Shown here piece after piece: positions 1,225-14,917 of a stretch of 64,000 nucleotides of DNA. The translations under genes and the position numbers were made by a program. The DNA is from Aquimarina brevivitae (lineage in GTDB: Bacteria > Bacteroidota > Bacteroidia > Flavobacteriales > Flavobacteriaceae), in NCBI RefSeq assembly GCF_004216895.1, contig NZ_SGXE01000007.1:62001-126000 (forward strand). Direction: 5' to 3'. The first letter of the stretch is position 1. The number at the start of each line of letters is the position of its first letter. The notes under the pieces were generated by a model. That model made no database searches. It was not told the origin of the DNA and worked only from the letters and a program-made list of their open reading frames with translations.

Positions 1225-1369
1225 TTAGCAGGTGAGTTTTTGAGTCAGTGAGTGTGGGAGTTTTTGAGTATAGGAGTACCTAAGTTCAAATTTTAGGAAG
1301 TTTTTAGAATCTCAGAACTTTTATGTGAATTCATAATAAGTAAACTCTCAATTATCAAATTAAATTCTT

Positions 1370-1735
1370 TGTCATTCGAAACTTTTAGCGTTATTCATTT
1401 CTTTTGCTTGTCCAAAAGAAACGAACCAAAAAAAAGGACACTTTTTCATAGGAATTTTTTAGCTTTCGCTAAAAACCATCTTGCAAACTCCGCGGTGCAT
1501 AGCACCTGAATCTCGGAGCTTTGCCACGATTATTCTTGTGAAAAAGAAGAACTGGTTTTAGCCTTAATAAAATAATTTAAAAGTTTATGGCGTTCCTCTA
1601 AAACCGTGGGTTTTAGCGGCGGGCTCTGACTACAATTCCATTGCTGCCGTGCAGCATCCGGGATTTTCGCGTCGATCCCTAACGCGAAATAGTTTCGATA
1701 ACCAACTCGCATTAGCGTATCTTTATATACGCTTT
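1370..1735. repeat. Probable dispersed intergenic element in a gene-free stretch
   Basis: The 533-bp gap 1225-1757 contains no convincing gene. Its first 80 bases are low-complexity variants of GTGAGTTTTTGAGT. The part from about 1370 resembles a non-coding block I recall recurring between genes in flavobacteria. Landmarks are TTTGCTTGTCCAAAAGAAAC near 1402, GCTTTCGCTAAAAACC near 1463, GGGCTCTGACTACAATTCCA near 1621 and GCTGCCGTGCAGCATCCGGG near 1643, which contains the palindrome GCTGC-CGT-GCAGC. A 60-codon minus-strand frame (1530-1712) lies inside it but has no protein-like features. Whether it is mobile, an RNA or a relic cannot be told from one copy. Confidence 0.4.
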
Positions 1736-1757
1736 CCTATTTCGTTTGTATTCGGTT

Positions 1758-2453
1758 TTAATTTCTAACAAACAACCATTTAACCGCGTGGTAAAAACCA
1801 AGCCCCACATACCCTAAAAGTCCTGCTTTTTTCTTCTCTTTTAAGCGGATGGTGATGGTAGAAAACTCCGATAAATGATTGATCCTTTTCATTTTTCCTT
1901 TTAACAGGTCTATCGTTTCATTTAACCGTTCGAGCTCTTTTTCAACTTTCACTGCGGATTCCACGTCTTCGGCTTTGGCCAATAATTGTAGATACCGCTC
2001 CCGGGACTTCTCTGCATTTTCAAGTCGTATTTGATAATCCAGATATTGTTCGGTCACATCCTTACCCACTAGTGTTTTACGTTGCACTTTGCCGAGCTCA
2101 GCAATCTCCTCTAAGGCCTCTTGTAAACGGTCACTTTTAACGCGTATGATCGTTCTGTAGGTTCCTATTTCATTGACATAGCCTTCATAGCGTTCCGCAA
2201 TTTTAGCGATGTGTACATTAGCAGTATCTGGCACTTTAACTTTTAAGGTAAGAAATGCAGAAAACAAGACCTTCTTGATATTTTTTTCGGCATCGTAATA
2301 ATTGGCAGCATCACTAGTTGGGGATACCTCAGCATCAGCCTGTGCAGTGTTAAATTCATTACCGTAGTTCGCTGTGCTTTTTCTGTAGGATGAACAACTA
2401 AGCAGGGTTGCACTGCATAACACAATCCATACAAATACTTTTACTTTCTTCAT
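1758..2453 (-). CDS. DUF4349 domain lipoprotein
   Basis: A 231-residue envelope lipoprotein. A signal peptide ends in the lipobox LLSC (Cys 20). A low-complexity linker (about 21-60) follows, then the DUF4349 body. That body has a beta-rich segment (FSAFLTLKVKVPDTANVHIA), the family motif AERYEGYVNEIGTYR, and a long charged helix likely to form a coiled coil (about 135-195, KSRERYLQLLAKAEDVESAV onward). The C-terminus is hydrophobic (about 212-229) and could be a second membrane anchor. The molecular function of DUF4349 is unknown. The gene appears to stand alone, with 250 bp to the next minus-strand gene upstream. The domain call is good; the role is unassigned. Confidence 0.8.
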   Translation of the reverse strand: MKKVKVFVWIVLCSATLLSCSSYRKSTANYGNEFNTAQADAEVSPTSDAANYYDAEKNIKKVLFSAFLTLKVKVPDTANVHIAKIAERYEGYVNEIGTYRTIIRVKSDRLQEALEEIAELGKVQRKTLVGKDVTEQYLDYQIRLENAEKSRERYLQLLAKAEDVESAVKVEKELERLNETIDLLKGKMKRINHLSEFSTITIRLKEKKKAGLLGYVGLGFYHAVKWLFVRN

Positions 2454-2623
2454 TTTTTAATGGTTTTTAGTACGCTTTCTATATTCGGAATACCCGCGAT
2501 TACAACACCTATACCAAAAATCAGTCCATAATTAATTGTGTTCCCATATAATTTTGTAAAGCCATCAGCATAAGCGGAAGATTCTACTCTTCTTCTTTCA
2601 GAAGCTTAACGGAGAATGACGAC

Positions 2624-2642
2624 TAGTACCCTAGGCTAGCTA
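2624..2642 (-). pseudogene. 19-bp gene-end remnant shared with the gene at 6121
   Basis: Read on the minus strand, these bases and the few before them encode ..SSIASLGY then stop. The same 19 bases occur at 6122-6140, where they form the end (..GLASLGY, stop) of an intact membrane-protein gene. The upstream codons here do not continue the similarity, so only the tail of a related gene or cassette remains. It lies in the 256-bp gap 2454-2709, which shows no other gene. Confidence 0.4.
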
Positions 2643-2709
2643 TACTACTGTACTTATAATGATATGATTTGATTTTGTGTAATTGTAGGCATAAACCGTT
2701 TAGTAATAC

Positions 2710-3570
2710 TTACTTCCGTTTAAAAATTCGTGGGTCGCCGTCAAATGCTGGTTCATTTGTTAATCGAGTATGCTTCTTTGTCGCTAGATCATAGGCATAG
2801 ATTTCCCAGTTTCCATCTTTGTTTGTTCCATACCATATGGTGTTACCATCCTTAGAAAATCTTGCAATAAGTTCCATTCCTGGACTTTTAGTGATATTTA
2901 TAATATTACCCGTACTTAACTCTTGTAATAGAATATCCTGATTTCCTTCTTCGAACTGGTCCGAACTATACACCAACCGTTGACCGTCTGCAGATAATTC
3001 GCCTCTTTCATTGTTCGCAGGAGTATCGGTTAATTGTGTGCTATTTTTGGTTTTTACATCGTATAAAAACACATCATTAGAACCCAAATGATTGCTTGTA
3101 TACGCTATGTTATGACCATCAGCACTCCAACTGGGATACCGCGCTTGTCCTGCTATGTCTTTTGTAATATTTTCTATTTGTTTGGTATCAGGATCATATA
3201 TAAATATATCATTCTTGCAAGAATAGAGCTGTAGTTGATTTAATGGCGAATACAGTATGTTTTTATCATCCAGAATGCAATTTGTTGGATGCGGTAGCTC
3301 CGTTTCTTGAAGCGTATTTATATTGATTTGTATTCTTTTAATACCTGTTTCATTTTGTCTTAAAAAACTAATCTCTTTTTCATTCATCCAGGTAGGACCC
3401 CATTCTTCATCCTCGGTTTGTGTCAGTGCTAATTGATTTTCTCCATTGAGATCCATCATAAATATGTCCGAATTCCCATTACGGCTTGAAGAAAAAATAA
3501 TTTTTTCAGAACTGTTTTGGCAGCTCATTATGAGCAAGCTGAGACTAAGTAATGCTATTAGTTTATTCAT
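2710..3570 (-). CDS. WD40-like (PD40/TolB-type) beta-propeller lipoprotein
   Basis: A 286-residue lipoprotein. The frame is open further upstream, but I choose the ATG at 3568-3570 because it starts a lipoprotein signal, MNKLIALLSLSLLIMSC, with Cys 17. At least five PD40-type blades follow, each with a strand such as IFSSSRNGNSDIF, YPSWSADGHNIAYTS, RGELSADGQRLVYSS or RFSKDGNTIWYGT, and each ending in an S/T-rich turn like TRLTNEP. Such propellers are usually periplasmic protein-protein scaffolds or surface-exposed proteins. No catalytic site is visible. It could equally be described as TolB-like, but there is no TolB N-terminal domain and no Tol-Pal gene nearby, so a Tol role is not implied. 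Confidence 0.75.
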   Translation of the reverse strand: MNKLIALLSLSLLIMSCQNSSEKIIFSSSRNGNSDIFMMDLNGENQLALTQTEDEEWGPTWMNEKEISFLRQNETGIKRIQININTLQETELPHPTNCILDDKNILYSPLNQLQLYSCKNDIFIYDPDTKQIENITKDIAGQARYPSWSADGHNIAYTSNHLGSNDVFLYDVKTKNSTQLTDTPANNERGELSADGQRLVYSSDQFEEGNQDILLQELSTGNIINITKSPGMELIARFSKDGNTIWYGTNKDGNWEIYAYDLATKKHTRLTNEPAFDGDPRIFKRK

Positions 3571-3699
3571 ATTATATATTGAATTCAAGACAAACAGTAT
3601 TAAAATATGCTGTTTTAAAATATAAAGTGTAATTCTATTCTTACCACCATATAAATAAAATAGCAATTGCGATTTTCTCTACTATTAATAATTTTTCAC

Positions 3700-4098
3700 T
3701 TAAAGCCTTTTATTTCTAGTTATCAAATGTGATAGTACCAAAAAAGCGAAAGCCACACCAAAGCCTAAAACACCAATATTGATTCCAAAAATGGTCTTTT
3801 CGCTACCATCTAAATACTGCATCGAACCACCGTACCCCTCTTTTAAAAAGAAGGCTATTAGAAAACCTCCCATAATAAATGCACTTAATAGAGCACTTAT
3901 GGTGGTTTCTCCTTTAAACCAAACTAACCATAGACAAAATATACCGATACTTGTGTTTGTTAGTAACTGCCATACTTCGTGTATCCTAACGTGTGGTGTC
4001 CAATCTGGATTCCAAATATGTGTATCATTGATTTCTAAAATAGGGACTGCAATCGCGTACAGCAATACGCTAAATGTTATGGCAATTTTCTTTAACAT
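3700..4098 (-). CDS. Small four-helix inner-membrane protein of unknown function
   Basis: A 132-residue protein with about four hydrophobic segments (roughly 5-20, 45-60, 68-86 and 103-123). A polar loop after helix 1 contains NDTHIWNPDWTPHVRIHEVWQ, with several His and Trp residues. The last helix ends in positively charged RNKRL. The His/Trp-rich loop looks conserved in kind and might bind a ligand or metal, but I do not recognise the family with certainty. It is at the left edge of the accessory run of minus-strand genes. ATG 4098 places the first helix directly at the N-terminus. Confidence 0.6.
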   Translation of the reverse strand: MLKKIAITFSVLLYAIAVPILEINDTHIWNPDWTPHVRIHEVWQLLTNTSIGIFCLWLVWFKGETTISALLSAFIMGGFLIAFFLKEGYGGSMQYLDGSEKTIFGINIGVLGFGVAFAFLVLSHLITRNKRL

Positions 4099-4234
4099 AC
4101 GTATTAATCTTAGAGCGCACCAGGCGATATAAGCCTGATATATTAGCTTTGTTGTAAAACAATGTAATAAATATTAATCATATAGCCTACTTAGGCTTCT
4201 GTAGGCTTAGTATTATGTACATTGGGCAGAACAT

Positions 4235-4774
4235 TCATTCCGTAAAGATTATTTCTTCTGTGTCATAATTCACCCTATACTGCAGTTCTAATTTTTGCTC
4301 TTCCTCCAAATGGTTCAGATCAAAGCTGTATAGGAAAAATTCATAGCTTACTAAGCTCAATTTTTTCAATTCTGTATACGGTTGCCTTCCGCTTTTTCGC
4401 CATTTATCCAACAACTTTTTTACTTTAGGATGCGCGTCGGCAATGTCTACAGCTTTTTGTATTCGTTGCACTTCTTGTCCCATATCCATTTCGAACTGAT
4501 TTTTGGAGTCAACGTACCCGTTAAGATCTAGATATTTCCATATCCTTTGGTTATGGAGTGTTACCGTATCCATTAATTCATCAGACACTACATCTCCTGC
4601 AACACCTTTAATACTAAAAGGCCATTTTTGTGCTACAATTCGCTCTGCATGTTGACGCACAAAGTTACCGGTACTAAAAACCGTCCAAATCTCAAGGGTA
4701 TCATTATCTACTGCTGTTTGCGATACTGTCAACTGCGCAAATAATAAGGAAACGAGGAGCGTCAATTTCTTCAT
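4235..4774 (-). CDS. Secreted protein of unknown function
   Basis: A 179-residue protein with a cleavable signal peptide (MKKLTLLVSLLFAQLTVSQT, likely cut near residue 18-20). The mature part is charged and mostly helical, with motifs such as IWTVFSTGNFVRQHAERIVAQ and a central basic KKLLDKWRKSGRQPYTELKK. No cysteines, lipobox or enzyme motif are seen, and I do not recognise the family. It probably acts in the periplasm. The gene stands apart from its neighbours (136 bp downstream, about 96 bp upstream). Confidence 0.55.
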   Translation of the reverse strand: MKKLTLLVSLLFAQLTVSQTAVDNDTLEIWTVFSTGNFVRQHAERIVAQKWPFSIKGVAGDVVSDELMDTVTLHNQRIWKYLDLNGYVDSKNQFEMDMGQEVQRIQKAVDIADAHPKVKKLLDKWRKSGRQPYTELKKLSLVSYEFFLYSFDLNHLEEEQKLELQYRVNYDTEEIIFTE

Positions 4775-4870
4775 TCGAGATTGGGTTATTATTTGTACTA
4801 GCAGTTGCGCTATGTACTTACTTCTGGTTAAGATTATACCACCGCAATTACACCCTTAGTATACGTAGAC

Positions 4871-5224
4871 TCACTCCATTTTTTCATAAGCTACGCTAGC
4901 TTTTGCGATGCCGTTTGGATTAGGATCTAAATATAATTCGTGATCTTTTAAAAGCTTTACTTTCTTTACCTCTCCTTTGGCAATTGCAATTTCTTTTATA
5001 ATCTTATCATCTTGTTGCACTCGGATTGAAAATTCTCTTTTTCCGGTATTCGTTACTACACTGTAGCACTCCTTTCCAAAATAAGGATTGATGGTGGCGT
5101 CTTGACCAGGCCCTTTACCGGTCATGATCATACTCTGAGAGGGTTCAAGAACAAAGTCAGTTTGCGCTTTTGCATCAAGATGTATGAAAAGTATTAATAA
5201 AAAAACGATGATTATTTTTTTCAT
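4871..5224 (-). CDS. Small secreted protein of unknown function
   Basis: A 117-residue exported protein. The signal peptide runs to about residue 20 (LFIHLDAKAQ, with AKA before the predicted cut). The mature 97 residues alternate short beta-like strands (FVLEPSQSMIMTGKG, YSVVTNTGKREFSIRVQQD, KKVKLLKDHELYLDPN) and look like a small beta-sandwich. A single mature cysteine (ECYSV) is present. The family is not recognised. The codirectional neighbours do not suggest a partner. A decayed copy of the block's hairpin repeat (5341-5358) lies in the gap upstream of it. Confidence 0.55.
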   Translation of the reverse strand: MKKIIIVFLLILFIHLDAKAQTDFVLEPSQSMIMTGKGPGQDATINPYFGKECYSVVTNTGKREFSIRVQQDDKIIKEIAIAKGEVKKVKLLKDHELYLDPNPNGIAKASVAYEKME

Positions 5225-5340
5225 TTTTATGTATGTTGTGATTAGTTATCCGATAATTGGGCTGTACTATTCCGCCACTAGTCTAAGATAGTAAATTAGT
5301 AAAGACTTTCCGAGAAAAGGGTTAGAAGCAATTAGCTATA

Positions 5341-5358
5341 ATTACAAACTTTGATGAG
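5341..5358 (-). repeat. Decayed copy of the 27-bp hairpin repeat
   Basis: The plus strand reads ATTACAAACTTTGATGAG, which differs at two of 18 positions from the intact repeat (GTTACAAACTTCGATGAG). The second arm is unrecognisable. It lies 34 bp beyond the stop codon of the gene at 5393, on the same side as the intact copies lie relative to their genes. Confidence 0.5.
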
Positions 5359-5392
5359 TAGGTAACTATTACTTCATCGCAATGACATTTTA

Positions 5393-6034
5393 CTAGAATG
5401 GAATAGTAGTTATTCTTTCAATCTTATCAGTATCATTATTGATAATCCAAACAACCGCATATGCACCTGCACCATCGCTATTCAATGAAGATATGTAAAG
5501 AAGATTATCATTACCATTATAACATACACTCATATCGTTCACATTTGATTCATAAAGGTGTTTCAAGTAATCTTCATTGGTTAACATATACTTTTTATTT
5601 TGAAAATCAATGGTAATATTTTTGTATTCAAATCTGGGTAAATTACCATCTGTATCATAGGAATTTTTGGTATCAATCTCAACCCTTTCAAACTTTTTGC
5701 GCTCTACAAAAATTTTAATTCTATCTGTAAACAGCAACAACTTGTTTTCGTTTATTTTTTTTCGATTAAAATTGTCTTTTTCATTAATATCAAGTATTCT
5801 GGATTTATGTATATATCCACTCCTGTCCTTGTTTTTGATACTCCAAACCTCATACCAATTTCCTAACTGATCATTAATCCAAACCAGGTGGTTATTATGA
5901 AATGTGTCGATAACTTTTGAGATTTTAAAATCATATGTATCCCTTACATTGACAAAACCATCAGTATCCTTAACAAAGCCTTGTGAATAAATGGCTATGG
6001 GTACTATTAGGAAGAAAAATGTTGAAACTCTCAT
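5393..6034 (-). CDS. Secreted SH3-like domain protein
   Basis: A 213-residue protein with a signal peptide (about 1-18, ending AIYSQG). It is followed by a bacterial SH3-type segment of about 60 residues: DTDGFVNVRDTYDFKISKVI, a turn, then NWYEVWSIKNKDRSGYIHKS. Such domains often bind peptidoglycan or other peptides. The C-terminal half (about 90-213) is beta-rich, ends with a strand containing AYAVVWIINND, and resembles no domain I can name. It is probably periplasmic. The gene is followed after 34 bp by the decayed hairpin copy at 5341-5358. Confidence 0.55.
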   Translation of the reverse strand: MRVSTFFFLIVPIAIYSQGFVKDTDGFVNVRDTYDFKISKVIDTFHNNHLVWINDQLGNWYEVWSIKNKDRSGYIHKSRILDINEKDNFNRKKINENKLLLFTDRIKIFVERKKFERVEIDTKNSYDTDGNLPRFEYKNITIDFQNKKYMLTNEDYLKHLYESNVNDMSVCYNGNDNLLYISSLNSDGAGAYAVVWIINNDTDKIERITTIPF

Positions 6035-6120
6035 AGGTAATAGTTGTTAATAACTTTAATTGATTTCGACGTCTCCAAAACTTTACGGAAAACGTTATCA
6101 CATAGCAATACGAATCAACC

Positions 6121-6444
6121 TTAGTACCCTAGGCTAGCTAAACCAAGGAAAAGTAATGATAGGATTATAAAAAAAGAAAAACCGATAACCGAGATGTAAA
6201 ACTGGTAGTTTTTTGACTCCTTATTTTTTATGCTCAATATCGTAAACACGATCCCAGCAATTAAAATCAAAATGGATACAACCGTTGCAATGCTCATATT
6301 CCGTATAAATCGCTCAAAGTTGTGCAATGCGCTATTAAAATTGATTGCTAAATAAAAAGTGACACAATTTAATAGTACTAGATATACTATGAACCTAAAG
6401 GACCACTTTTTATAATTGGTTGGGTTGGTTGTTGTGATTTCCAC
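6121..6444 (-). CDS. Small three-helix membrane protein, unknown
   Basis: A 107-residue protein with hydrophobic helices at about 17-34, 52-71 and 82-103 and a short polar N-terminus. No family is recognised. Its last codons (..LGLASLGY) are duplicated as a remnant at 2624-2642. Among neighbouring cassette-like genes it lacks an adjacent intact hairpin. The segment just past its stop codon contains no palindrome. Confidence 0.5.
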   Translation of the reverse strand: MEITTTNPTNYKKWSFRFIVYLVLLNCVTFYLAINFNSALHNFERFIRNMSIATVVSILILIAGIVFTILSIKNKESKNYQFYISVIGFSFFIILSLLFLGLASLGY

Positions 6445-6568
6445 CTGCTTGTTTTTAAATTATTAAGATTACTTGTGTGCGTTATGTTTATGTAAGCATC
6501 GAAATTAAAAAATTAAAATCAAATTGAAAATATGTTTAGATGTAGTTATCGCAGTTGACATCACAAAA

Positions 6569-6595
6569 GCATCGAAGTTACAAACTTCGATGAGC
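6569..6595 (-). repeat. 27-bp hairpin repeat, copy A
   Basis: Perfect 10-bp arms CATCGAAGTT and AACTTCGATG flank the loop ACA (plus strand), bordered by G on the left and AGC on the right. It begins 6 bp after the stop codon of the gene at 6602. Identical copies lie at 7729 and 9023, and a one-mismatch copy at 10635. On the minus strand a short T-run (CTTTTG) follows this copy only. Confidence 0.85.
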
Positions 6596-6601
6596 CAGTG
6601 T

Positions 6602-6901
6602 TCACCTTTTATCTTCTAAGGTATTAAACTGCACCCAAAGCCACATTGCAAATAACCCAAAAATACAAGCCAAAATACTTTCTTTCCATTTGTCAAATTT
6701 ATCCAAAGGCATAGACCAAATAAATAGTACATAATAGACATAGAAAGAAATGAAGGCTATTAAACACACAACATTCATCAAGATAGTGTCTAGTGATACT
6801 AGTAAAAAGGCAACATACATCAAATGTAAGATGGTAAAGACAAATAGTACCTTTCGCAGCCTCTTGATATCTGATTGTATTTCCTTTTCGGATTTATTCA
6901 T
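6602..6901 (-). CDS. Small three-helix membrane protein, partly duplicated nearby
   Basis: A 99-residue protein with a charged N-terminus (MNKSEKEIQSDIKRLRKV) and hydrophobic helices at about 19-36, 40-60 and 74-92. It ends in a short polar tail (NTLEDKR). Its function is unknown. Bases 6809-6882, coding for roughly residues 7-31, recur at 7759-7832 with one mismatch, so a second copy of this gene once existed. The intact hairpin copy A starts 6 bp after its stop. The gene at 6926 ends just upstream (24 bp), so co-transcription is likely. Confidence 0.55.
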   Translation of the reverse strand: MNKSEKEIQSDIKRLRKVLFVFTILHLMYVAFLLVSLDTILMNVVCLIAFISFYVYYVLFIWSMPLDKFDKWKESILACIFGLFAMWLWVQFNTLEDKR

Positions 6902-6925
6902 TGTTTGTAATTAAGCGTTGCATTC

Positions 6926-7573
6926 TTATGGGCACAAGTACTTTTTATACTTATGTAAATCTTCATTTAGCATAGCTACCACACCCCTGCTGGTCCTGGT
7001 GGCACCAGAAACTCCATCAACAATTTGCGTGGCTGTATTATTTAAATACCTGTCTTGTAAAAGCGTATAGGATTGTTTTGTTAAGTCAACTGTGGTGCCT
7101 ATAAATTGATTAGCAAAGGAAGGTTTTACAATGTTTGCCCCTAGGTCTTTTGTTTCACTTTTATGGTCAAAAGCAATCTTTTCTACCTTCATCGAAGTCT
7201 TATCCAGAAGAACCAATCCCCAAATCCTATCCCAAAGCCCTTTTCCATAAACTGGTAGAATTACCTTAGAGGTATTCTTGATTTCAAAAATTGCATATTG
7301 ACTTGGATTCTCATTCTTGGTGTTAGCAACATAGCTATCCAGGGCTTCTTGAATTGTTATCGAACGTATTTTGCCAGAAATATCGATTACTTTTGCGGTG
7401 ATTAGCGTATTTATCTTAGTTGCGCTAGGCTTCTTTGAAGCGTCGACCATAGTTACGATATATTTTGCCGCCATTCTTCGCTCTTGCTCTTTCTCTTTTT
7501 CCGCTATTTTCAAGTTGGACTTGCAACAAATGATCACGGCTATGATGCCTACTATGAATAATCCTTTTTTCAT
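6926..7573 (-). CDS. Orphan NqrC/RnfG-like FMN-binding protein
   Basis: A 215-residue protein with an N-terminal hydrophobic helix (about 4-18, with CC at its end). It is followed by a charged helix and a periplasmic FMN-binding domain like that of NqrC, a Na+-translocating NADH:quinone reductase subunit. Matching features are PVYGKGLWDRIWGLVLLD, then LGANIVKPSFANQFIG, then DGVSGATRTSRGV. In SGAT the Thr is the residue that carries covalent FMN in NqrC/RnfG. The usual ETPGLG is altered to ETKDLG. No other nqr, rnf or apbE gene is in the window, so it is not part of a complex encoded here. It may be an extracytoplasmic electron carrier; this is inference. Confidence 0.75.
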   Translation of the reverse strand: MKKGLFIVGIIAVIICCKSNLKIAEKEKEQERRMAAKYIVTMVDASKKPSATKINTLITAKVIDISGKIRSITIQEALDSYVANTKNENPSQYAIFEIKNTSKVILPVYGKGLWDRIWGLVLLDKTSMKVEKIAFDHKSETKDLGANIVKPSFANQFIGTTVDLTKQSYTLLQDRYLNNTATQIVDGVSGATRTSRGVVAMLNEDLHKYKKYLCP

Positions 7574-7728
7574 TGTTTATTTAGCTCTGTATGTTTAATG
7601 CGCTCAGTAAAGAAAAGGTTGGGCTATATCCAATCTTCGGATACCAATTAAGGCGAGGCATTGTTATTTCAATTTAGGTATTAATTTGCCGTTAGTAAAA
7701 AAGTGCAAAACTAATAATTTTATGGTAA

Positions 7729-7755
7729 GCATCGAAGTTACAAACTTCGATGAGC
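7729..7755 (-). repeat. 27-bp hairpin repeat, copy B
   Basis: Identical to copy A over all 27 bases. It is separated from the stop codon of the gene at 7844 by the 74-bp duplicated gene fragment at 7759-7832. The hairpin and fragment together look like the tail of a cassette whose gene has been mostly deleted. The rest of the gap, 7574-7728, shows nothing recognisable. Confidence 0.85.
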
Positions 7756-7758
7756 AGG

Positions 7759-7832
7759 GGCAACATACATCAAATGTAAGATGGTAAAGACAAATAGTAC
7801 CTTTCGCAGTCTCTTGATATCTGATTGTATTT
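7759..7832 (-). pseudogene. Fragment of a second copy of the 99-residue membrane protein gene
   Basis: These 74 bases equal 6809-6882 except for one base (T at 7810 against C at 6860). In the intact gene they code for about residues 7-31. Here there is no start codon, the frame is not continued, and the fragment abuts hairpin copy B. The near identity implies a recent duplication or recombination rather than chance. Confidence 0.85.
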
Positions 7833-7843
7833 TATTTAAACGA

Positions 7844-8335
7844 TCAGTAGCTGCAATGTTCTCGATAAGTTTTAAATTCTCTTAAAATAAGTATGGCAAT
7901 AATGACATACTTCAACAACCAAACTGGTGTCTCTATTGCAAAATTTTTCAATGCGTACTGGTCTTGTAAACTGTCGTAGTACGTGTTTTTAAGTTCTAAA
8001 TATTGAGTGGTTTGATATAAACTGGTAACAAAAGGCTGTGCAAAACCCAGCACTTGCGTAATAATATAAGCAAACACAGATGCCATAAAAAGACGTTGCG
8101 TAATTTTAGGTTTGTTAACGTCTATAGTTTTTAGTCTCTTAATTATAACTATAAAAATAAATAGTACAACAATTAATGAGACATATTGCGAAAGCCCATA
8201 GCTATACAATGGTTTCATTTCTGAATATAAAAGAGACTCTTCAAGAATTAGTGAAACCAAAAAAGAAATACCTTGAAGCGTTAAACAAAGGAAAACACCA
8301 ATTCCTATCCATCCTAATAGTTTATCATTGCTCAT
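7844..8335 (-). CDS. Four-helix membrane protein, DUF2975-like in layout
   Basis: A 163-residue protein with four hydrophobic segments (about 9-30, 50-66, 84-103 and 139-153). A polar loop between helices 3 and 4 contains TQYLELKNTYYDSLQDQ. The layout and the final RREF-like charged tail resemble DUF2975-type membrane proteins, but the similarity is weak and the function unknown. It overlaps nothing. The next gene upstream (8362) ends 26 bp away, so the two may form one transcript with it. The stop is followed by the duplicated fragment and hairpin copy B. Confidence 0.5.
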   Translation of the reverse strand: MSNDKLLGWIGIGVFLCLTLQGISFLVSLILEESLLYSEMKPLYSYGLSQYVSLIVVLFIFIVIIKRLKTIDVNKPKITQRLFMASVFAYIITQVLGFAQPFVTSLYQTTQYLELKNTYYDSLQDQYALKNFAIETPVWLLKYVIIAILILREFKTYREHCSY

Positions 8336-8361
8336 AACATTGTTTTATTACGTGCTTAAGT

Positions 8362-8838
8362 TTATTCACTTATCTTCTTTCCTTGCCTATTATTTTCCGC
8401 ATTTTTTATTTCTGAAAACTTTTTAGTTATGGTCGTACCATTCGTACCCTCAATTTTAAGATGTAAAAGAAGTCCGTTAGGCTCACGAGTTATTTCAAAA
8501 ATATATTCGTGTTCATCTGGTACACCGTCCCTAAAATCATTAGGTATAAAATGACGAACTTTTACATAATACTTGTCAGCATAGGTCACTAAAAAGTCAT
8601 TTTCTCCACAAATGGTATTAAAGGCTCTTTTTTGACTGTCTGCAAAGATAATTTTATCTAATCCACTACTCACCAATTTTTTGTCTGATGCTTCACTACC
8701 AGAATAAAAACCATATTGAATTTTTACCAAATCAAGGTCTAAACTATCATTAACAATTACATTAATGGAATTATCTACGGAGTTACAAGAGATTAAAATT
8801 GTTAATATAAATAGAATTACTAAATTGATTTTATGCAT
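8362..8838 (-). CDS. Small lipoprotein of unknown function
   Basis: A 158-residue lipoprotein. The signal MHKINLVILFILTILISC has a clear lipobox (LISC, Cys 18). The mature domain is beta-rich with an acidic start and strands such as DKYYVKVRHFIPNDF, YIFEITREPNGLLLHLKIEG. Two mature cysteine positions are not paired (only ICGEN is seen). No family is recognised. It is probably anchored to the inner or outer membrane facing the periplasm. It precedes the four-helix protein at 7844 by 26 bp and may be co-transcribed with it. Confidence 0.55.
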   Translation of the reverse strand: MHKINLVILFILTILISCNSVDNSINVIVNDSLDLDLVKIQYGFYSGSEASDKKLVSSGLDKIIFADSQKRAFNTICGENDFLVTYADKYYVKVRHFIPNDFRDGVPDEHEYIFEITREPNGLLLHLKIEGTNGTTITKKFSEIKNAENNRQGKKISE

Positions 8839-9022
8839 GTTACTAATTGATTATTGCTTCAATTATAAGTTGAAAATTATAATTTTTCGATAAAATAAAG
8901 TTTTTAGTAATATCAAAGGAGCTTATGGGCGTATATCCTTTTAAAAACAAGAGCGCTAACTCAGAAAATTTAAGATTCTATTTAATCGAATAGGATAAAA
9001 ATTAATCATTCTCTGCATTACA

Positions 9023-9049
9023 GCATCGAAGTTACAAACTTCGATGAGC
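9023..9049 (-). repeat. 27-bp hairpin repeat, copy C
   Basis: Identical to copies A and B. It begins 5 bp after the stop codon of the gene at 9055. On the minus strand the base run after it is CTGTAATG, with no T-run, which argues against a factor-independent terminator. The 184 bp between it and the next gene start (8838) contain no recognisable gene. Confidence 0.85.
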
Positions 9050-9054
9050 ATTTA

Positions 9055-9633
9055 TCAAAGTTCCGTTTTAGACCCTAAGATACGCTTTGCTGCAATTTTT
9101 GCTTCCTTGACATATTTACTGTTTTGGTCTGCAATATTTTGTAATTCAGATTCTGATTTTGACTGAAATTTTAGCTCATACCCTTTAATTCGCTTTTCCA
9201 TTGCTAACTTTTCATTTGCCAACTCAGTATCCGTTATTTCCTTGTTAGGAAACAATTCATTTAGTTTTCCTTTACTACAAACAAAAAACAGAATTAGTAA
9301 CCCCAAAAATACTGGATTAAAAGTAATGAAGCTTGTGCCAAACCCTATACTATATACTACACTTACATGGCTTAATTCAATTATATTCATCAATCCAAGT
9401 AATAATGTCAGAATAAATATATAGATGTAAATTCTTTTTGCTTTAAAATAAAGAACTGTAGAAATTAGTATTAATCCTAACCCTAAGAAAAACTTATAAT
9501 CCAAAACATAATCCGTAAAAAGAGTATCTCCAATAGAAAAGATCAGCAGCACTAAACAAATGAATAAGGGAATGAAATCTTTCTGTATCATCGACGTTAA
9601 TTCTTTTTTAATGAGGTCAATATAATAGAACAC
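9055..9633 (-). CDS. Membrane protein with four helices and a charged C-terminal tail
   Basis: A 192-residue protein. Hydrophobic helices span about 21-38, 47-63, 70-88 and 93-117. A cytoplasmic-type tail (about 120-192) rich in Lys and Glu is predicted to be helical (ELANEKLAMEKRIKGYEL, YVKEAKIAAKRILG) and may form a coiled coil. An internal Met at residue 15 (base 9591) is an alternative start; the first 14 residues are amphipathic. No family is recognised. Hairpin copy C starts 5 bp beyond its stop codon. Confidence 0.5.
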   Translation of the reverse strand: MFYYIDLIKKELTSMIQKDFIPLFICLVLLIFSIGDTLFTDYVLDYKFFLGLGLILISTVLYFKAKRIYIYIFILTLLLGLMNIIELSHVSVVYSIGFGTSFITFNPVFLGLLILFFVCSKGKLNELFPNKEITDTELANEKLAMEKRIKGYELKFQSKSESELQNIADQNSKYVKEAKIAAKRILGSKTEL

Positions 9634-9701
9634 CTTAAGATACTGAGCTATAAAAATAAAATAATTTCGAAACTTCTATATTTCCTGACTCTTAGCATTA
9701 T

Positions 9702-9950
9702 TTATTTCATTACTTCTTTTAACCATTCTTCAAAAGCCGATTTATCTTGTAATTGAACTTCTGAATAATCAAGGTTATCTAGATCTAAAACAATTAGAGG
9801 ATACTCTTTTTTACTAATTCCTCGTATAGTTTCTAGTGTTTTGTTCCAAGATGTATTTGTCCAAGGTTTGTCTCCACCAAAATCCCATTTAGGAAGTGTT
9901 ACTGATTTAGAGTTATTAGTTGTTTTTATTCGATATCCTTTTAAATACAT
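9702..9950 (-). CDS. Small acidic-tailed protein of unknown function
   Basis: An 82-residue protein with no signal peptide, probably cytoplasmic. The first half is polar with several Trp (LPKWDFGGDKPWTNTSWNK). The second half contains a strand and acidic helix (YPLIVLDLDNLDYSEVQ, then FEEWLKEVMK). A size and layout like this are common in immunity or antitoxin proteins, but no specific match is seen. Its start overlaps, in another frame, a protein-like open stretch (9916-10070), so the local gene structure may be damaged. Confidence 0.4.
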   Translation of the reverse strand: MYLKGYRIKTTNNSKSVTLPKWDFGGDKPWTNTSWNKTLETIRGISKKEYPLIVLDLDNLDYSEVQLQDKSAFEEWLKEVMK

Positions 9951-10070
9951 TCAAAATTAATTTATCGGTATAGCTTTGATCTAATGCTAATTGAATGTTT
10001 AAAATTAAACCAAGATTATACTCTAGATCAGTTCCCCATTGTTTCGTAATTATCGATAACAAATCAATTT
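9916..10070 (-). pseudogene. Possible gene remnant overlapping the 9702 gene start
   Basis: A minus-strand frame without an ATG reads about 50 residues of normal-looking protein, including IITKQWGTDLEYNLGLILN and IQLALDQSYTDKLILNVFKR, then stops at 9916. It overlaps the end of the gene at 10050 and the start of the gene at 9702 in other frames. It may be the C-terminus of a frameshifted gene, or a short gene starting at TTG. Low confidence. Confidence 0.25.
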
Positions 10071-10526
10071 AATTCTTTCTTCGTTGATATCAAGAGCAAA
10101 TTCTCCAACGCTTTCTATTATTTCTTGAATCTTTATTAAGTTTTGTTCTAACAATGGCTCAGTACTCACGCGTTTAGGAAAAATCAGATATTCAATTTCT
10201 TTAAAAGTTAGCCAACCTCCTAATGAATTATGACCCTCAAATCCGTTTTGCCAATAATCAAAACCATATGTTATATCTTCTTCCAAATAAAGTTCGCCTA
10301 TCTGTTCATTTTGTACTTTCTTGAATTTAATTTTTTCGATCCAATTTAAATTATCCACAAGGCTGTCTACCAACCGAACCCATTTTGAGTTTGACATAAG
10401 ATGTTCCGAGAAACGAACTATTGATTTTTCAATTTCTCGATCAATTTGCTCATCATATCTTTTTGCTTTTTTTGTTCTCATTTTAGTTGTAAGTGACTTA
10501 TTTAAATACTTTCCAAAAGTAACCAT
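10050..10526 (-). CDS. Cytoplasmic protein of unknown function
   Basis: A 158-residue soluble protein with no signal or membrane segment. The N-terminal third is basic and helical (TTKMRTKKAKRYDEQIDREI). The middle holds an aromatic patch (DITYGFDYWQNGFEGHNSLG GWLTF split by a turn). The C-terminus is an amphipathic helix ending LICYR. I recognise no family. The next gene upstream (10665) ends 138 bp away, past hairpin copy D. Internal Met codons at residues 16 and 43 are possible alternative starts. Confidence 0.5.
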   Translation of the reverse strand: MVTFGKYLNKSLTTKMRTKKAKRYDEQIDREIEKSIVRFSEHLMSNSKWVRLVDSLVDNLNWIEKIKFKKVQNEQIGELYLEEDITYGFDYWQNGFEGHNSLGGWLTFKEIEYLIFPKRVSTEPLLEQNLIKIQEIIESVGEFALDINEERIKLICYR

Positions 10527-10634
10527 TTTGGTGTTTTATAAAATATGAGCTCCTAACAATGAACTATTTACTTCAAAAGATATAACATTTCACGTAGATA
10601 AGCTTAACGCAATAAAAATACTGTCAATCACTTT

Positions 10635-10661
10635 GCATCGAAGTTACAAACTTGGATGAGC
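10635..10661 (-). repeat. 27-bp hairpin repeat, copy D
   Basis: The same 27 bases as copies A-C except for one change in the second arm (CTTGGATG for CTTCGATG), which leaves one mismatch in the stem. It begins 3 bp after the stop codon of the gene at 10665. The 10-mer AAGCTTAACG lies about 26 bp further on (10600-10609) and recurs at 2602-2611. Confidence 0.85.
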
Positions 10662-10664
10662 AGG

Positions 10665-11234
10665 TTATTTTAATTGTCCTTGATTAAATTTGTCATTATA
10701 CGTCTTAATTTTTCCATTGATTTTAACTTTAGAGAAGTCAAAGTTGTCCAATTGACTTTTTGACACCAATATATTACCACCAACTCTTTTAAGTGATGAT
10801 ATGTTATGACATGTAGTCTTTCTTAAATTTAAATTTCCTCCAACCTCCTCTAAAGACTCCAAAGTTGCATGTGTATTTTTTAAATTTAAATCACCGTGAA
10901 CAATTTTTAATGGTTTGATAGATTCTAAATTTTCTTGATAAACATGATTAGAAAACCACAAATCTCCACCAACTTCGGTTAAATTCCCAAAGTCATTCAT
11001 CTTACCATCAATGCCTATAGTTCCGTTTATTTTTTCTATTTGTCCAAATGTTTTAATGAAATTTTCTTGAATAAACCCATTATAACCATTATACTTTTCT
11101 CTGACAATCAAGTCTCCATTAATAAATTTCGTTGCGAGTACTAAAAAATAATTCCTAATTCCTCTCTCAATCTGTAATAAAAATGGTTTTTGGTTTAATT
11201 CAGCTAGTTCGAAGAGCGTTTTAAATTCATCCAC
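10665..11234 (-). CDS. Leucine-rich 'VGG' repeat protein, possible C-terminal half of a frameshifted gene
   Basis: About 189 residues from a GTG codon at 11232-11234. The C-terminal half has repeats of the form L..VGG(D/N)L.L (LTEVGGDLWFSN, LEEVGGNLNLRKT, LKRVGGNILVS) of about 20 residues. These are typical of receptor-L-like or right-handed solenoid folds in Bacteroidota. The frame stays open upstream of GTG for about 18 more codons and reads sensibly (KAQEEVAINWLKDTTGY). It overlaps the end of the gene at 11255 in another frame. No ATG is available, so the true N-terminus may belong to that upstream gene. Hairpin copy D lies 3 bp after the stop. Confidence 0.5.
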   Translation of the reverse strand: MDEFKTLFELAELNQKPFLLQIERGIRNYFLVLATKFINGDLIVREKYNGYNGFIQENFIKTFGQIEKINGTIGIDGKMNDFGNLTEVGGDLWFSNHVYQENLESIKPLKIVHGDLNLKNTHATLESLEEVGGNLNLRKTTCHNISSLKRVGGNILVSKSQLDNFDFSKVKINGKIKTYNDKFNQGQLK

Positions 11235-11254
11235 AATATAACCTGTGGTATCTT

Positions 11255-11659
11255 TTAGCCAATTAATAGCAACTTCTTCTTGGGCTTTTTATCTAGTTTG
11301 AATTTATTTGGAAAATCGGGTGCTTTTACGTTAGGATGATTATGGGTAGAAATAATTAATTCCCCTTTGTTTATGATTCTATCTGTAGTTTCATCAGATT
11401 CAATTTTCAGTCTATTTAAAATGTCATCTTCCTGAATTCTTATTGAGAAGCTAGCTAACTTTTTAAATGGAATACCTTTCTGGTCAATATAATTGTAAAT
11501 TTTGGACATTCCGATTATTTTCTTTTCAGCTTGAACACAACGTTTAATATATGTGTCGTAGTAGGGCAAATTGTTACCAAGCCATCGACTTTCCTCCGCA
11601 TTGATTGCTAACTTATCCATTTCGCAAGCATTGCGCCTTACCAAAAATATAACAACCAT
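11255..11659 (-). CDS. Protein with THNHP motif (JAB/toxin-like), possibly frameshifted
   Basis: A 134-residue soluble protein. The segment GELIISTHNHPNVKAPDFPN resembles the His-x-His part of JAB/MPN-type or polymorphic-toxin metallopeptidases, but the later Asp of a JAMM site is not clear. A second Met at residue 14 (MDKLAINAEESRW) is an alternative start. The C-terminus becomes a run of Lys and Leu (KKPKKKLLLIG) just before the stop. Adding one A to the five-A run near 11289 would join this frame to the downstream VGG-repeat frame. Either two overlapping genes or one broken 330-residue gene is possible. Confidence 0.4.
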   Translation of the reverse strand: MVVIFLVRRNACEMDKLAINAEESRWLGNNLPYYDTYIKRCVQAEKKIIGMSKIYNYIDQKGIPFKKLASFSIRIQEDDILNRLKIESDETTDRIINKGELIISTHNHPNVKAPDFPNKFKLDKKPKKKLLLIG

Positions 11660-11708
11660 TGGATTTATTACTTAGCTGTTATGACATCATATATCGTGTT
11701 GGCAGCAG

Positions 11709-12545
11709 TTATTTATGTTTTGAGATAAGATAGTTTACGAATGCAGAACAAGCGATTAACATAAATCTGGCTTCTTCTAATTCTGGAGCTATCTGATCAG
11801 TCAAAAGTCCGTGTCTAATTCCTCCACTATCCGAAGTGTAACCATATATAGCACTAAAACCGGATTTTAAACTTTTAGGTAACGGGTGTTTTTGGTCAAT
11901 TATTTTTAAAGCTTGCCCAAGAGTTGTTTTATCATTTCCGATTATAATTTTACTTAAAGACTCTACTGCTGATATTGATTCCTTAATTGAATTTCGATAA
12001 TCAGGATTACGTTTATCCGTTATAAGCTTTAAAGAACTTTCAAGATGTAGCTTTACAGTCCGATATTTCATACTCGAATTTAATGCCTTTTCGATCTCTT
12101 CTATTTCCTTTGAAGAGTCTATTTCAAGTAAAGTTAATCCAACAAACCTGAAAGCAGATAATTCACGTTCAAGATATGGATTACAAACTGCTACGAATGG
12201 ATCCTTAAATTCCTCCGCACAAAATTCTAAATATTCATAAATCTCATACTATTTGGCATCAAAAAACCATTTTCTTACATAATTATATGCATCTTCTGGA
12301 TAAATTTTACCGTCATAGATTTGTAAGTTGTCAATTGGTATTTTGAAAAAATCTCTCCAGAGATGACGAAAAAAATTTGCTAATGCAGATGGACCATTTC
12401 CATATCCATTATTATGATTTGATAGTCTTCCAAAAGTTTCATCACAAATAATAGACCATAGAGTATTTCTGAGATCATCGGGCATTTGATCTTTTTCTAA
12501 TTTTGTTCTGGGTTTGAACAATCCAAGTCTTTCAGAAAACTTCAT
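11709..12545 (-). pseudogene. AbiJ (NTD4)-like abortive-infection gene with an in-frame TAG
   Basis: Codons from ATG 12543-12545 run in one frame to the stop at 11709, a product of 278 residues, except for a single TAG at 12249-12251 (codon 99). Before it: MKFSERLGLFKPRTKLEKDQ, DDLRNTLWSIICDETFG, then KWFFDAK. After it: YEIYEYLEFCAEEF and a C-terminal HEPN-like part with SGFSAIYGYTSDSGGIRHGL. Homologues of this family, as I recall them, have a Trp-Tyr pair at the break, so TGG to TAG is the simplest change. AbiJ-type proteins give phage-triggered abortive infection. The downstream 120 residues could still be translated from the ATG at 12071. Start, order of parts and single frame are seen directly; the family is by recall. 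Confidence 0.75.
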
Positions 12546-12778
12546 TTGTATTGATTGTTTTTATTGCTGCCAACGTAAGAATAAACACACCGGTATAGTT
12601 ATTCCCTCGTTTCATAGTATAAAAGTACATGAATTCATAAATCCTTAAGCACTTATCCTATTTACCTTTCAACAATAATCAGCTTTTTTTTCAACAAAGT
12701 GTTGGGTAAGGATATGTCGTCGATACTTGCTACGGGTTACGGAACAACTATAGCCATCAAAAAAGCTTAAACGTAACT

Positions 12779-13675
12779 TTAGAGTTTATTATCCAAAATA
12801 CTCTTTTCGTAGGCATTGTGGATCAAGATGATAAGCAACCCAAAAGCCACTGCAGCAACAATCAATATAGTGCTGGTTAAGCCGCTGGTGCCAAAGGACA
12901 TCCGGATCAGTATGGTAGAGATCACAAAACCAGAGTTCCTGATAATTTTATGGAAGAGATTGGTGTAAAAAAAGGAAATCAATAGCAGCACCACATCGAC
13001 CAAAATCAAAATGGTAAAAAACTGATCAAAAAACAGGTTGTTGATGCCTTCAAACGGAGTGACCCCATCGTAATTGGAGAGCTCCACCGCCCATTCAACG
13101 AGCGTATAACATCCAATACCTACAAACAACGGCAATAATACGATAGCAATTACCTTTTTCTTTTCAATAAAGCGGTCAATGATGGGTTGGATCTCCTGCC
13201 GATCGATGTATTTGATTTTTACCTGTTTTTCGAATATAAAAATCAGGTAAAACAGTAATAACGAGGCGATAATATCATAGGTAAACTGCAAGTCGCCCTT
13301 GATCTCAAACCAATTCGAAGACAGCTCTAAGTCCGATAAATCTTTGAATATTTTACGAATAATAATTAGCGTAATGATTTCATACTGTTTGCTGATGTAG
13401 ATGGAAAACGATTTGGGCAAATAATAAATCAACAAATACACCTCATAGATCAGGATAAAAGAAAAGGGCGTATACACTGCAGAGATAGGGTTGGTTAGCA
13501 ACTGTGAGGTAGGTGACAGTGTCATCACCTCAAAGCGCACCAGATAGATCACCACCAAATGCACAAAGAAACTCAGCAAGGCTACATAAAGTATCGCCTT
13601 CTCTGCTTTTTCCTTGGTCTCCTCAGAGAGTAGGTATCGATATACTTTGTTGACAAGCCTATTTTTTTGCTGCAT
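12779..13675 (-). CDS. Polytopic membrane protein of unknown function
   Basis: A 298-residue protein with about six or seven hydrophobic segments (approximately 27-47, 66-86, 132-147, 174-196, 214-240 and 252-284). A central charged loop (FEKQVKIKYIDRQEIQPIID) is probably cytoplasmic. No transporter or enzyme motif is seen. Base composition returns to that of the conserved flavobacterial genes to the right, so it probably marks the end of the accessory block. The 233-bp gap 12546-12778 before it holds no gene; GCTGCCAAC at 12566-12574 is inverted at 11698-11706 on the other side of the AbiJ pseudogene. Confidence 0.6.
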   Translation of the reverse strand: MQQKNRLVNKVYRYLLSEETKEKAEKAILYVALLSFFVHLVVIYLVRFEVMTLSPTSQLLTNPISAVYTPFSFILIYEVYLLIYYLPKSFSIYISKQYEIITLIIIRKIFKDLSDLELSSNWFEIKGDLQFTYDIIASLLLFYLIFIFEKQVKIKYIDRQEIQPIIDRFIEKKKVIAIVLLPLFVGIGCYTLVEWAVELSNYDGVTPFEGINNLFFDQFFTILILVDVVLLLISFFYTNLFHKIIRNSGFVISTILIRMSFGTSGLTSTILIVAAVAFGLLIILIHNAYEKSILDNKL

Positions 13676-13867
13676 AGCTTTGTGTGATCACTAATTGGTT
13701 TTATCCGTTTTTGGCGTATTTGCCGTGTACCTGGTGTTTACAGATCGCTACGGAAAGATACTAAAAAGTACAGCCAACACGGTAGACTTTCTCCATCCAT
13801 TACACACTTTTATACATCTTACAAAAAGCATTGCCCAGCGTATCACTTTTGGTAAAAACCACTTGGT

Positions 13868-14428
13868 TTATTTTAAAAGAATGTAATCTATGCATAGTTG
13901 AAATTGCTCTGGCTTTTTATTCCCGATCAAAAAGCGGAGCTCTTCAATTGTAGGATGCGCAAATTTGGGCATATTCAGTTTTCTACCTCTATACGTAGGA
14001 TACATTTCGCTAAGTGGTATTTCAATATCTTGCCACTCCCCCGTAGTTTCAAACGGATACACATAGGATTGATAATCACTGGCATCGGCTTTAACCCTAA
14101 ATTGATACGTGGTCTTGGCTCCCTTAACCCGTAATACCACTTTGGTGTATTGACTTACATTTACAGCATCAAAACGATAGCGTAGCGAAGAAAACCCTCC
14201 ATTATTGGCTAAGGAAATCTTACCTTCAAAAACACCGTGACCTTCATCATTCAATCTAAAATTACCAGAAGATCGACCGCCCATTACCACATCGTCCACA
14301 ATCTGCCATTGGTCTACCGTTGCGTTTTTGCTAAAGTCAAATAACATTTGGGTCTGTGCCGGATGCGAATTACTGCTCATCATAACAATTACTACTAAAA
14401 ATATCATCATATTGCTTTCACTAGTCAA
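13868..14428 (-). CDS. CIA30 (NDUFAF1-like) domain secreted protein
   Basis: A 186-residue protein. After an N-terminal hydrophobic segment (Met 7 or 8 may be the true start) comes a complete CIA30 domain: WQIVDDVVMGGRSSGNF, GVFEGKISLANNGGFSSLR, YQFRVKADASDYQSYVYPF, then WQDIEIPLSEMYPTYRGRK. This galactose-binding-like fold is named after a mitochondrial complex I assembly factor. Bacterial members are extracytoplasmic and of unknown role, so assembly of complex I is not implied. It is transcribed away from the gene at 14555. The 190-bp gap 13676-13867 shows nothing. Confidence 0.85.
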   Translation of the reverse strand: MTSESNMMIFLVVIVMMSSNSHPAQTQMLFDFSKNATVDQWQIVDDVVMGGRSSGNFRLNDEGHGVFEGKISLANNGGFSSLRYRFDAVNVSQYTKVVLRVKGAKTTYQFRVKADASDYQSYVYPFETTGEWQDIEIPLSEMYPTYRGRKLNMPKFAHPTIEELRFLIGNKKPEQFQLCIDYILLK

Positions 14429-14524
14429 CTAAGATAGCACTTCACTAGCGAAGCCGGGTGCTCATCTGCAACTATTTTGTGCTCAACTGTGCTCCCATAT
14501 TCCTAAAACTCTATAGCAATTTTG

Positions 14525-14532
14525 TAGCTTTG
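14525..14532 (+). promoter_or_regulatory. Candidate Bacteroidota -7 box (TAGCTTTG)
   Basis: TAGCTTTG matches TAnnTTTG, the -7 consensus of the Bacteroidota housekeeping sigma factor, 22 bp before the ATG of the small monooxygenase-like gene. No good TTG at -33 is seen, so confidence is modest. Confidence 0.4.
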
Positions 14533-14554
14533 TGCCGATAAAAAAAATCGTGTA

Positions 14555-14857
14555 ATGATCACCAGAATTGTAAAAATGGGCTTTGAGCCAGCTAAAGTAG
14601 ACGCTTTCTTAGCGGAATTCAATGCTAAAAAAGCAATGATCCGTAATTTTGAAGGCTGTCATCATTTAGAATTATTAAGGGATGTACAACATCCCAATCA
14701 ATTTTTTACCTATAGTTACTGGGAATCGGAAGCACACCTCAATAACTATCGCAACTCTGCGTTATTTAAAGAGGTCTGGGCGAATACTAAGATTAAATTC
14801 AATCAAAAACCAGAAGCCTGGAGCGTTCAGTCGTTATATAATGTAGAGAAATCGTAA
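14555..14857 (+). CDS. Antibiotic biosynthesis monooxygenase (ABM) family protein
   Basis: A 100-residue ferredoxin-like-fold protein of the ABM family. Members include quinol monooxygenases and heme-degrading enzymes as well as many proteins of unknown substrate. Typical features are the opening strand ITRIVKMGFEP, then EGCHHLELLRDVQHPNQFFT, SYWESEAHLNNYRNSALFKE and a C-terminal strand. It acts as a dimer in characterised relatives. The gene lies 60 bp before the gldFG fusion on the same strand, but nothing links the two functionally. No catalytic residue assignment can be made from the sequence. Confidence 0.85.
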   Translation: MITRIVKMGFEPAKVDAFLAEFNAKKAMIRNFEGCHHLELLRDVQHPNQFFTYSYWESEAHLNNYRNSALFKEVWANTKIKFNQKPEAWSVQSLYNVEKS

Positions 14858-14917
14858 TTTTAGGTTTTCAACATAGATCACAACATAAACATACACACCT
14901 CATAAGCACATTACACT

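What the first reader, a model, noticed from the sequence alone, without database searches (positions are those of the whole stretch)
5341..10661. Hairpin-punctuated one-direction gene array in the accessory block
Four copies of a 27-bp palindrome (6569, 7729, 9023, 10635; three identical, one with a single change) plus a decayed half at 5341 lie within 5.3 kb. Each intact one sits 3-6 bp beyond a stop codon, except copy B, which follows a duplicated gene fragment. All genes in between point the same way, are small, unrelated and mostly membrane or secreted proteins. Only copy A has a T-run, so they are not ordinary terminators. The layout recalls integron gene cassettes with their attC site at the 3-prime end, or REP elements moved by a RAYT transposase. 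No integrase or RAYT gene is in the window and clear attC core sites (GTTRRRY) are not seen.
Basis: partly seen in the sequence, partly recalled or inferred. Interest (0 to 1): 0.7.

Follow-up and report, generated by a model that had tools for sequence, protein, structure and literature searches.

The report
GCTC-tagged REP hairpins behind stop codons
The repeated hairpins are small mobile-type DNA palindromes that belong with a broken transposase gene elsewhere in the same genome and tend to sit just behind the ends of accessory genes; they are not an integron-like gene-cassette system.

Summary
Four 27-bp palindromes (three identical, one with one change) and a 22-nt relic lie in 5.3 kb, all in one orientation; three start 3, 5 and 6 nt after a stop codon, and copy B abuts a truncated copy of a gene. 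They are REP-type elements with an unusual tag: a 10-bp stem with a 3-nt loop, preceded by unpaired CYGCT(C) instead of GTAG or CGTC. Elsewhere in the genome, hairpins with the same core flank a RAYT (Y1/HuH) transposase gene that carries one in-frame stop. In named relatives, 15 of 71 hairpin loci (14 genomes) have a RAYT of at least 45% identity within 1.2 kb, against 0 of 20 control stretches. Over 141 distinct hairpins the tag side faces a stop codon within 20 nt in 23 cases (control 1.8%; opposite polarity 2). No integron integrase scores over its cut-off. The array lies in a 13.7-kb gap between two genes that are 1.1 kb or less apart in 46 of 47 relatives; nothing shows gene-plus-hairpin units moving as blocks. 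REPs behind stop codons are known; I did not find this core, nor a link to toxin-immunity and defence genes, in the papers searched.

The parts
6569..6595 (-). REP hairpin copy A, 6 nt after the stop of the gene at 6602-6901
   Evidence: the only copy with a terminator-like T-run
7729..7755 (-). REP hairpin copy B, joined directly to a truncated gene copy
9023..9049 (-). REP hairpin copy C, 5 nt after the stop of the gene at 9055-9633
10635..10661 (-). REP hairpin copy D (one stem mismatch), 3 nt after the stop of the gene at 10665-11234
5342..5363 (-). relic of the same element (tag and 5' arm), no longer folds
   Evidence: (0.01 expected for the whole search)
7759..7837 (-). 79-bp duplicate (96%) of 6809-6887, a piece of the 99-aa gene, ending at the 5' boundary (CCTGCTC) of copy B
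6602..6901 (-). 99-aa protein, membrane-like by eye, source of the duplicated piece
   Evidence: no Pfam match over cut-off
1225..14917 (.). 13.7-kb stretch between the 276-aa gene at 394-1224 and the 796-aa gene at 14918-17308, mostly lineage-specific; it holds the array. Its right end (100-aa gene at 14555-14857) has a look-alike in the gap of G042, so that end is probably not part of the extra DNA

Best explanation
The hairpins are solo copies of a REP-type family that belongs with a RAYT (Y1/HuH single-strand transposase) of Bacteroidota. Shown: a conserved stem-loop whose outer pairs change together; a CYGCT(C) tag on one side; many copies; RAYT genes flanked by hairpins with the same core in this genome and relatives; polarity, with the tag facing a nearby stop codon more often than chance. 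Inferred: the RAYT recognises tag plus hairpin on single-stranded DNA, cuts near the tag and pastes copies; copies survive mainly in the gap just behind stop codons, where they break nothing, and often in accessory islands. Once there the hairpin may act on the mRNA 3' end (slow ribosome release, or protect from 3' exonucleases). In this genome the cognate RAYT carries an in-frame stop, so the array is probably a relic of past activity.
For: RAYT gene with hairpins of the same core on both sides in the own genome. RAYT of at least 45% identity within 1.2 kb of a hairpin in 15 of 71 named loci (14 genomes), none in 20 control stretches. In 52 genomes of the genus, the 7 whose best match is a RAYT of at least 60% identity over 100 residues or more carry hairpins in numbers 12, 1, 12, 0, 7, 19, 4, more than the other 45 (Mann-Whitney p 6e-4; 4 or more copies, Fisher p 1.6e-4); with two genomes that hold shorter or borderline pieces added p is 0.003 and 9e-4, without the own genome 0.003 and 0.002 (counts, tests). 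HuH histidines, catalytic Tyr and NP are invariant in 10 of 10 aligned RAYTs; the model matches a RAYT bound to a REP hairpin (4er8) best (E 1.3e-6). Stem: 33 cells changed on both sides, shuffles 12.1 (sd 3.3), 0 of 500 as high; slid controls at most 9. Tag faces a stop within 20 nt in 23 of 141 hairpins, control 1.8%; opposite polarity 2 of 141, control 1.4%. 64 of 141 share a longer 3' unit with another hairpin and 22 of 141 have an inverted partner within 200 nt, like REP doublets.
Against: The tag is neither GTAG nor CGTC. The own cognate RAYT is broken (or misassembled, it lies near a contig end), so no present activity can be claimed; the Lacinutrix RAYT (L077) is split over two frames too. 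G010 and G025 have 7 and 5 hairpins without a RAYT of at least 60% identity, and G035 has such a RAYT without an exact hairpin. In one search two of the five measures, those least open to relatedness (pairs changed on both sides, further pair types), do not exceed the shuffles. 31 of 141 hairpins lie inside a called ORF (many of these look spurious, not checked). The four window copies share only 27-29 bp, without the longer unit of many other copies, and only B and D have the CCY before GCTC. Copy number (12 exact cores) is low for REPs. I have no clean before/after pair of sites for a single insertion.
Confidence: 0.85

Rival explanations
1. An integron-like or other cassette system in which gene plus hairpin moves as one unit.
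For: One-direction small accessory genes with a hairpin behind several stops; the block is absent at this site in relatives; one gene piece plus hairpin occurs twice; in L121 two genes with hairpins share 239 bp downstream at 90%, which looks like a duplicated module.
Against: No integron integrase over cut-off; no attC core; 2-3 genes per interval; of 17 island proteins none found directly beside a hairpin of another genome (held loci only; two had homologues in hairpin loci L071 and L095, not adjacent); in L097 and L077 most neighbouring genes run opposite to the hairpins; the hairpins belong with a RAYT.
Confidence: 0.05
2. Transcription terminators or mRNA 3'-end stabilisers kept for the host, without mobility.
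For: Polarity and closeness to stop codons; copy A has a T-run; terminator-like structures within 200 nt downstream of 22 of 141 hairpins against 23 of 282 random stretches and 9 of 141 on the other side (Fisher p 0.03 against random).
Against: Three of four window copies lack a T-run; patchy occurrence, 7 of 299 genomes of the family with the stricter pattern and 24 of 52 in the genus with the looser one; association with RAYT genes. An effect on the mRNA can coexist with mobility.
Confidence: 0.08
3. Operator sites of a dimeric DNA-binding regulator.
For: Near-perfect palindrome.
Against: Sites follow stop codons; outer stem bases change together (with the limits given above); one-sided tag; RAYT linkage.
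Confidence: 0.02

Closest known systems
GTAG REP elements with RAYT/TnpA-REP (REPtrons, REPINs/BIMEs)
   Same: Short palindrome with a one-sided tag, several copies, close behind 3' ends of genes, inverted doublets, RAYT gene flanked by copies (compare PMC3733652: abstract, two sections and passages seen; PMC8266576: introduction and passages seen)
   Different: Tag CYGCT(C) instead of GTAG; low copy number; Bacteroidota; clustered in accessory regions
TnpA-Y1 subclass 2.6 of Quentin et al. 2018 (PMC6006769: abstract, four sections in whole or part, passages seen)
   Same: Mostly Bacteroidetes; genes flanked by atypical structures without GT[AG]G, copies elsewhere in the genome; NH[LIV]H motif
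   Different: Y motif here mostly YIHLNP rather than YIH[QN]NP, and QFWK where the table gives WQ; the main text prints no sequence of the atypical structures that I could find, so identity could not be checked
Integron attC cassettes
   Same: Hairpin behind the gene, one-direction array
   Different: No integrase over cut-off, no core sites, 27 bp, several genes per interval

Membership tests
REP element (general) | 20-40 bp palindrome that folds as a single strand | tested here: met
   (A, B, C, and D more weakly)
REP element (general) | repeated copies near gene ends | tested here: met
   (23 of 141 within 20 nt behind a stop, control 1.8%)
REP element (general) | copies flank a RAYT gene | tested here: met
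GTAG or CGTC REP superfamily | GTAG or CGTC tag at the foot of the stem | tested here: not met
   tag is CYGCT(C): (GCTC fixed in part by the search patterns; the positions before it were free: C in 96 and 102 of 141 at -3 and -2, T or C in 101 of 141 at -1)
RAYT / class 2 TnpA-REP | HuH motif, catalytic Tyr with NP (Y---NP) | tested here: met
   10 of 10; fold match; Y1_Tnp over Pfam cut-off in 3 of 3 scanned relatives
RAYT / class 2 TnpA-REP | binds and cuts its REP as single strand | not testable with these tools
   needs a bench assay
TnpA-Y1 subclass 2.6 | NH[LIV]H, WQ, YIH[QN]NP motifs | tested here: inconclusive
   NH[ILVM]H; QFW in 9, QVW in L088; YIHLNP in 7 of 10, YIHMNP in L104, YMHLNP in L108, YIHNNP in L088
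Integron | integron integrase in the genome | tested here: not met
   six matches, none over the cut-off
Integron | attC with RYYYAAC and GTTRRRY core sites | tested here: not met

The most novel reading that the evidence does not exclude
The RAYT/REP family is aimed at, or kept at, the 3' ends of toxin-immunity and defence genes, and its tag-to-tag recombination (as the gene-piece/hairpin junction at copy B hints) helps reshuffle such genes in islands: a HuH-driven, integrase-free analogue of a gene-cassette array.
Probability: 0.08. Interest if true: 0.75.

Novelty: new variant of a known kind. Interest (0 to 1): 0.4.

Why it matters
It names a concrete sequence and cognate transposase for REP-like elements in Bacteroidota, where a survey reports only 'atypical secondary structures' (PMC6006769). 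The family has a different tag, so it offers a natural test of how RAYTs choose their guide sequence, and its polarity behind stop codons makes target choice versus selective survival testable. It may also serve as a marker for accessory toxin-immunity and defence islands in Flavobacteriia, if the small sample here holds up.

Tried and rejected
Integron: rejected. Portable-terminator idea (hairpin plus terminator as one mobile unit): looked attractive in single loci, but the count is only about twofold over control, and by eye a paralogue in L068 has a similar terminator with a different palindrome in front, so it is left as weak. Rfam at gathering thresholds: no match in the window. Before/after site for one insertion: the L068 paralogue pair was not clean. 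Array proteins beside other hairpins: none directly adjacent in the held loci. Operator site: disfavoured. Literature: the core string in four spellings is in no held paper; the letters GCTC do not occur as a word start in the four papers opened; 'RAYT' with 'stop codon' and 'terminator' none; 'RAYT' with 'polymorphic toxin' gave three listings that look unrelated from title and start of abstract, not opened. Other listings.

Limits of the counts. Genes were called as ORFs of 60 aa or more without a trained caller. The 141 hairpins were collected with patterns that fix the inner stem and most of the tag; copies nearer than 200 nt to the start or 300 nt to the end of a held stretch were dropped, and loci of one genome or of close relatives are not independent. 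The RHS motif is a regular expression of my own and the name is recalled, not from a family search. Control stretches were placed by me at round coordinates in six genomes of the genus, whereas the 71 named loci span Bacteroidota. In one search the gap was measured in 48 of 52 genomes (both genes on one contig); four could not be used. The genus name Aquimarina is inferred from unnamed contigs that equal named ones in length and hairpin position (for example G049:C1 and CANMTP010000001.1), not stated by a tool. Of 35 ORFs that end near a hairpin 3 are the window's own, 30 were scanned and 2 were dropped as very short or overlapping the hairpin.

Full report
What was reported. The window holds four 27-bp palindromes and one relic in one orientation, at the coordinates given. 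They are far beyond chance: a 22-mer taken from them has five places in 64 kb at up to 3 mismatches, 0.01 expected, and in the 3.88-Mb genome the pattern with up to 3 mismatches has 10 places against 0 for the reversed pattern. Read along the minus-strand genes the unit is GCTCATCGAAGTTTGTAACTTCGATGC: an unpaired GCT, a 10-bp stem and a 3-nt loop. A, B and C fold at -9.2 kcal/mol as single-stranded DNA, D at -3.9, and the relic does not fold. The tag lies 3, 5 and 6 nt after stop codons for D, C and A.

What it belongs to. The hairpin core occurs 12 times exactly in the genome (count, places): three in the array (D has a mismatch), four at contig C2 95-99 kb, one at C2 996 kb and four at the start of contig C1; decayed copies lie at C2 992-993 kb. 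At C1 a RAYT-type gene (C1:1278-1877, 68% identical to an intact relative, one in-frame stop) has hairpins of the family at both sides. Pfam Y1_Tnp rings twice over cut-off in the genome, both at C1; the other is a second RAYT of about 41% identity with a different palindrome around it. In named relatives RAYT genes are flanked by the hairpins (for example L068, L125, L126, and the frame-split one of L077). Of 71 named loci found by pattern, 17 hold a RAYT match and 15 of them (14 genomes) have one of at least 45% identity within 1.2 kb of the hairpin; 20 control stretches of 20 kb hold none. Across 52 genomes of the genus RAYT and hairpin numbers go together, with exceptions: G010 and G025 have hairpins without the close RAYT, G035 the reverse. 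Ten RAYT sequences share the HuH histidines, the tyrosine and NP. Sequence search of solved structures gives only a weak hit to 4er8 (E 0.16), but the predicted model, of modest confidence (mean pLDDT 66, C-terminal third under 50), matches 4er8, a RAYT bound to a REP hairpin, best.

Selection on structure. Among 52 distinct 27-mers the two outer stem pairs at positions 5:25 and 6:24 change on both sides (33 cells, shuffles 12.1, 0 of 500 as high; covariation score 0.138 against 0.042; 93.7% of cells paired against 88.1%). The other two measures, pairs changed on both sides (2 against 1.9) and further pair types (8 against 7.6), do not exceed the shuffles, and the tool warns that related sequences can exceed shuffles on cell counts. 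In the named scan the four bases of these pairs were free, so the pairing there is not made by the search. The bases at -3 and -2 before the tag are C in 96 and 102 of 141, at -1 T or C in 101 of 141; of the window copies only B and D fit.

Position and polarity. Over 141 distinct hairpins, 23 have the tag within 20 nt behind a same-strand stop, 1.8% expected from random positions in the same loci; 2 have a stop at the same distance on the other side, 1.4% expected. Without the window's own three the figure is 20 of 137. REPs close behind 3' ends are known for GTAG and CGTC families (PMC3733652, genome-distribution section read), and REPs within 15 nt of a stop are reported to stall ribosomes (passages of PMC12306157, citing earlier work).

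Rearrangement at copy B. A 79-bp piece of the 99-aa gene is repeated at 96% and ends where the consensus 5' boundary CCTGCTC of copy B starts. This is one junction; strand transfer at the tag is a possible cause but not shown.

Where the array sits. The 276-aa gene at 394-1224 and the 796-aa gene at 14918-17308 are neighbours in the genus: in 47 other genomes where both lie on one contig the gap is 25-1082 bp in 46 and 3523 bp in one, but 13,696 bp here. Most of the block is thus lineage-specific at this site; loss in all others is possible but less likely. Of 17 of its proteins scanned, Pfam matches over cut-off are FMN_bind, an AbiJ N-terminal domain and a marginal receptor-L match.

Company. 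RHS core motifs (own regular expression) occur in 7 of 71 named hairpin loci and in none of 400 kb of control; the chance that all seven fall in the hairpin share is 0.018. The own C2 95-99 kb cluster also lies beside such a gene, the own C1, C2 992-996 kb and window clusters do not. Of 30 genes ending close before a hairpin, 8 match Pfam at 1e-3: Imm-NTF2-2, Imm11 (just below cut-off), MORN_2 twice (one below), eCIS_core with MgtE_N, AIPR, SMC_N (below) and OsmC. This suggests toxin-immunity and defence neighbourhoods, but numbers are small and 22 of 30 have no match.

Known or new. In the held papers I found no print of this core sequence. Quentin et al. (PMC6006769, sections read) report that subclass 2.6 RAYTs, mostly of Bacteroidetes, are flanked by atypical structures lacking GT[AG]G; this family may be among them, but I found no sequences in the main text (supplements were not open to me) and the RAYT motifs fit only in part, so membership is open. 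I therefore call it a new variant of a known kind.

Noticed in passing
window 11709-12545: Two minus-strand ORFs match the C-terminal and N-terminal parts of the candidate defence protein PDC-S32 (AbiJ-like): a split, probably broken defence gene.
   Followed up: partly
window 1225-14917: 13.7-kb gap between two genes that are neighbours in the genus; one other genome (G042, L170) has a 730-aa protein resembling a glycoside hydrolase by eye in the same gap.
   Followed up: partly
L010 (G000:C1) 180-890: A second RAYT-type gene, about 41% identical to the query RAYT, has a different palindrome around it (CTCGACTCCTGTCGAG) and another palindrome inside beside an in-frame stop.
   Followed up: no
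L121, downstream of the gene at 4036-7974 (minus strand): RHS-like gene followed by a small gene, and two hairpins whose downstream 239 bp are 90% alike, as if orphan modules were duplicated with their hairpins.
   Followed up: partly
L023 7170-10900 (G000:C2:992-996 kb): A second one-direction run of small genes in the same genome with three variant hairpins, two of them about 7 and 13 nt behind called stops; they lack the exact tag and are not among the 141.
   Followed up: partly
L068 1413-3100: Paralogous genes whose stretch between stop and terminator holds a different palindrome in each (by eye).
   Followed up: no
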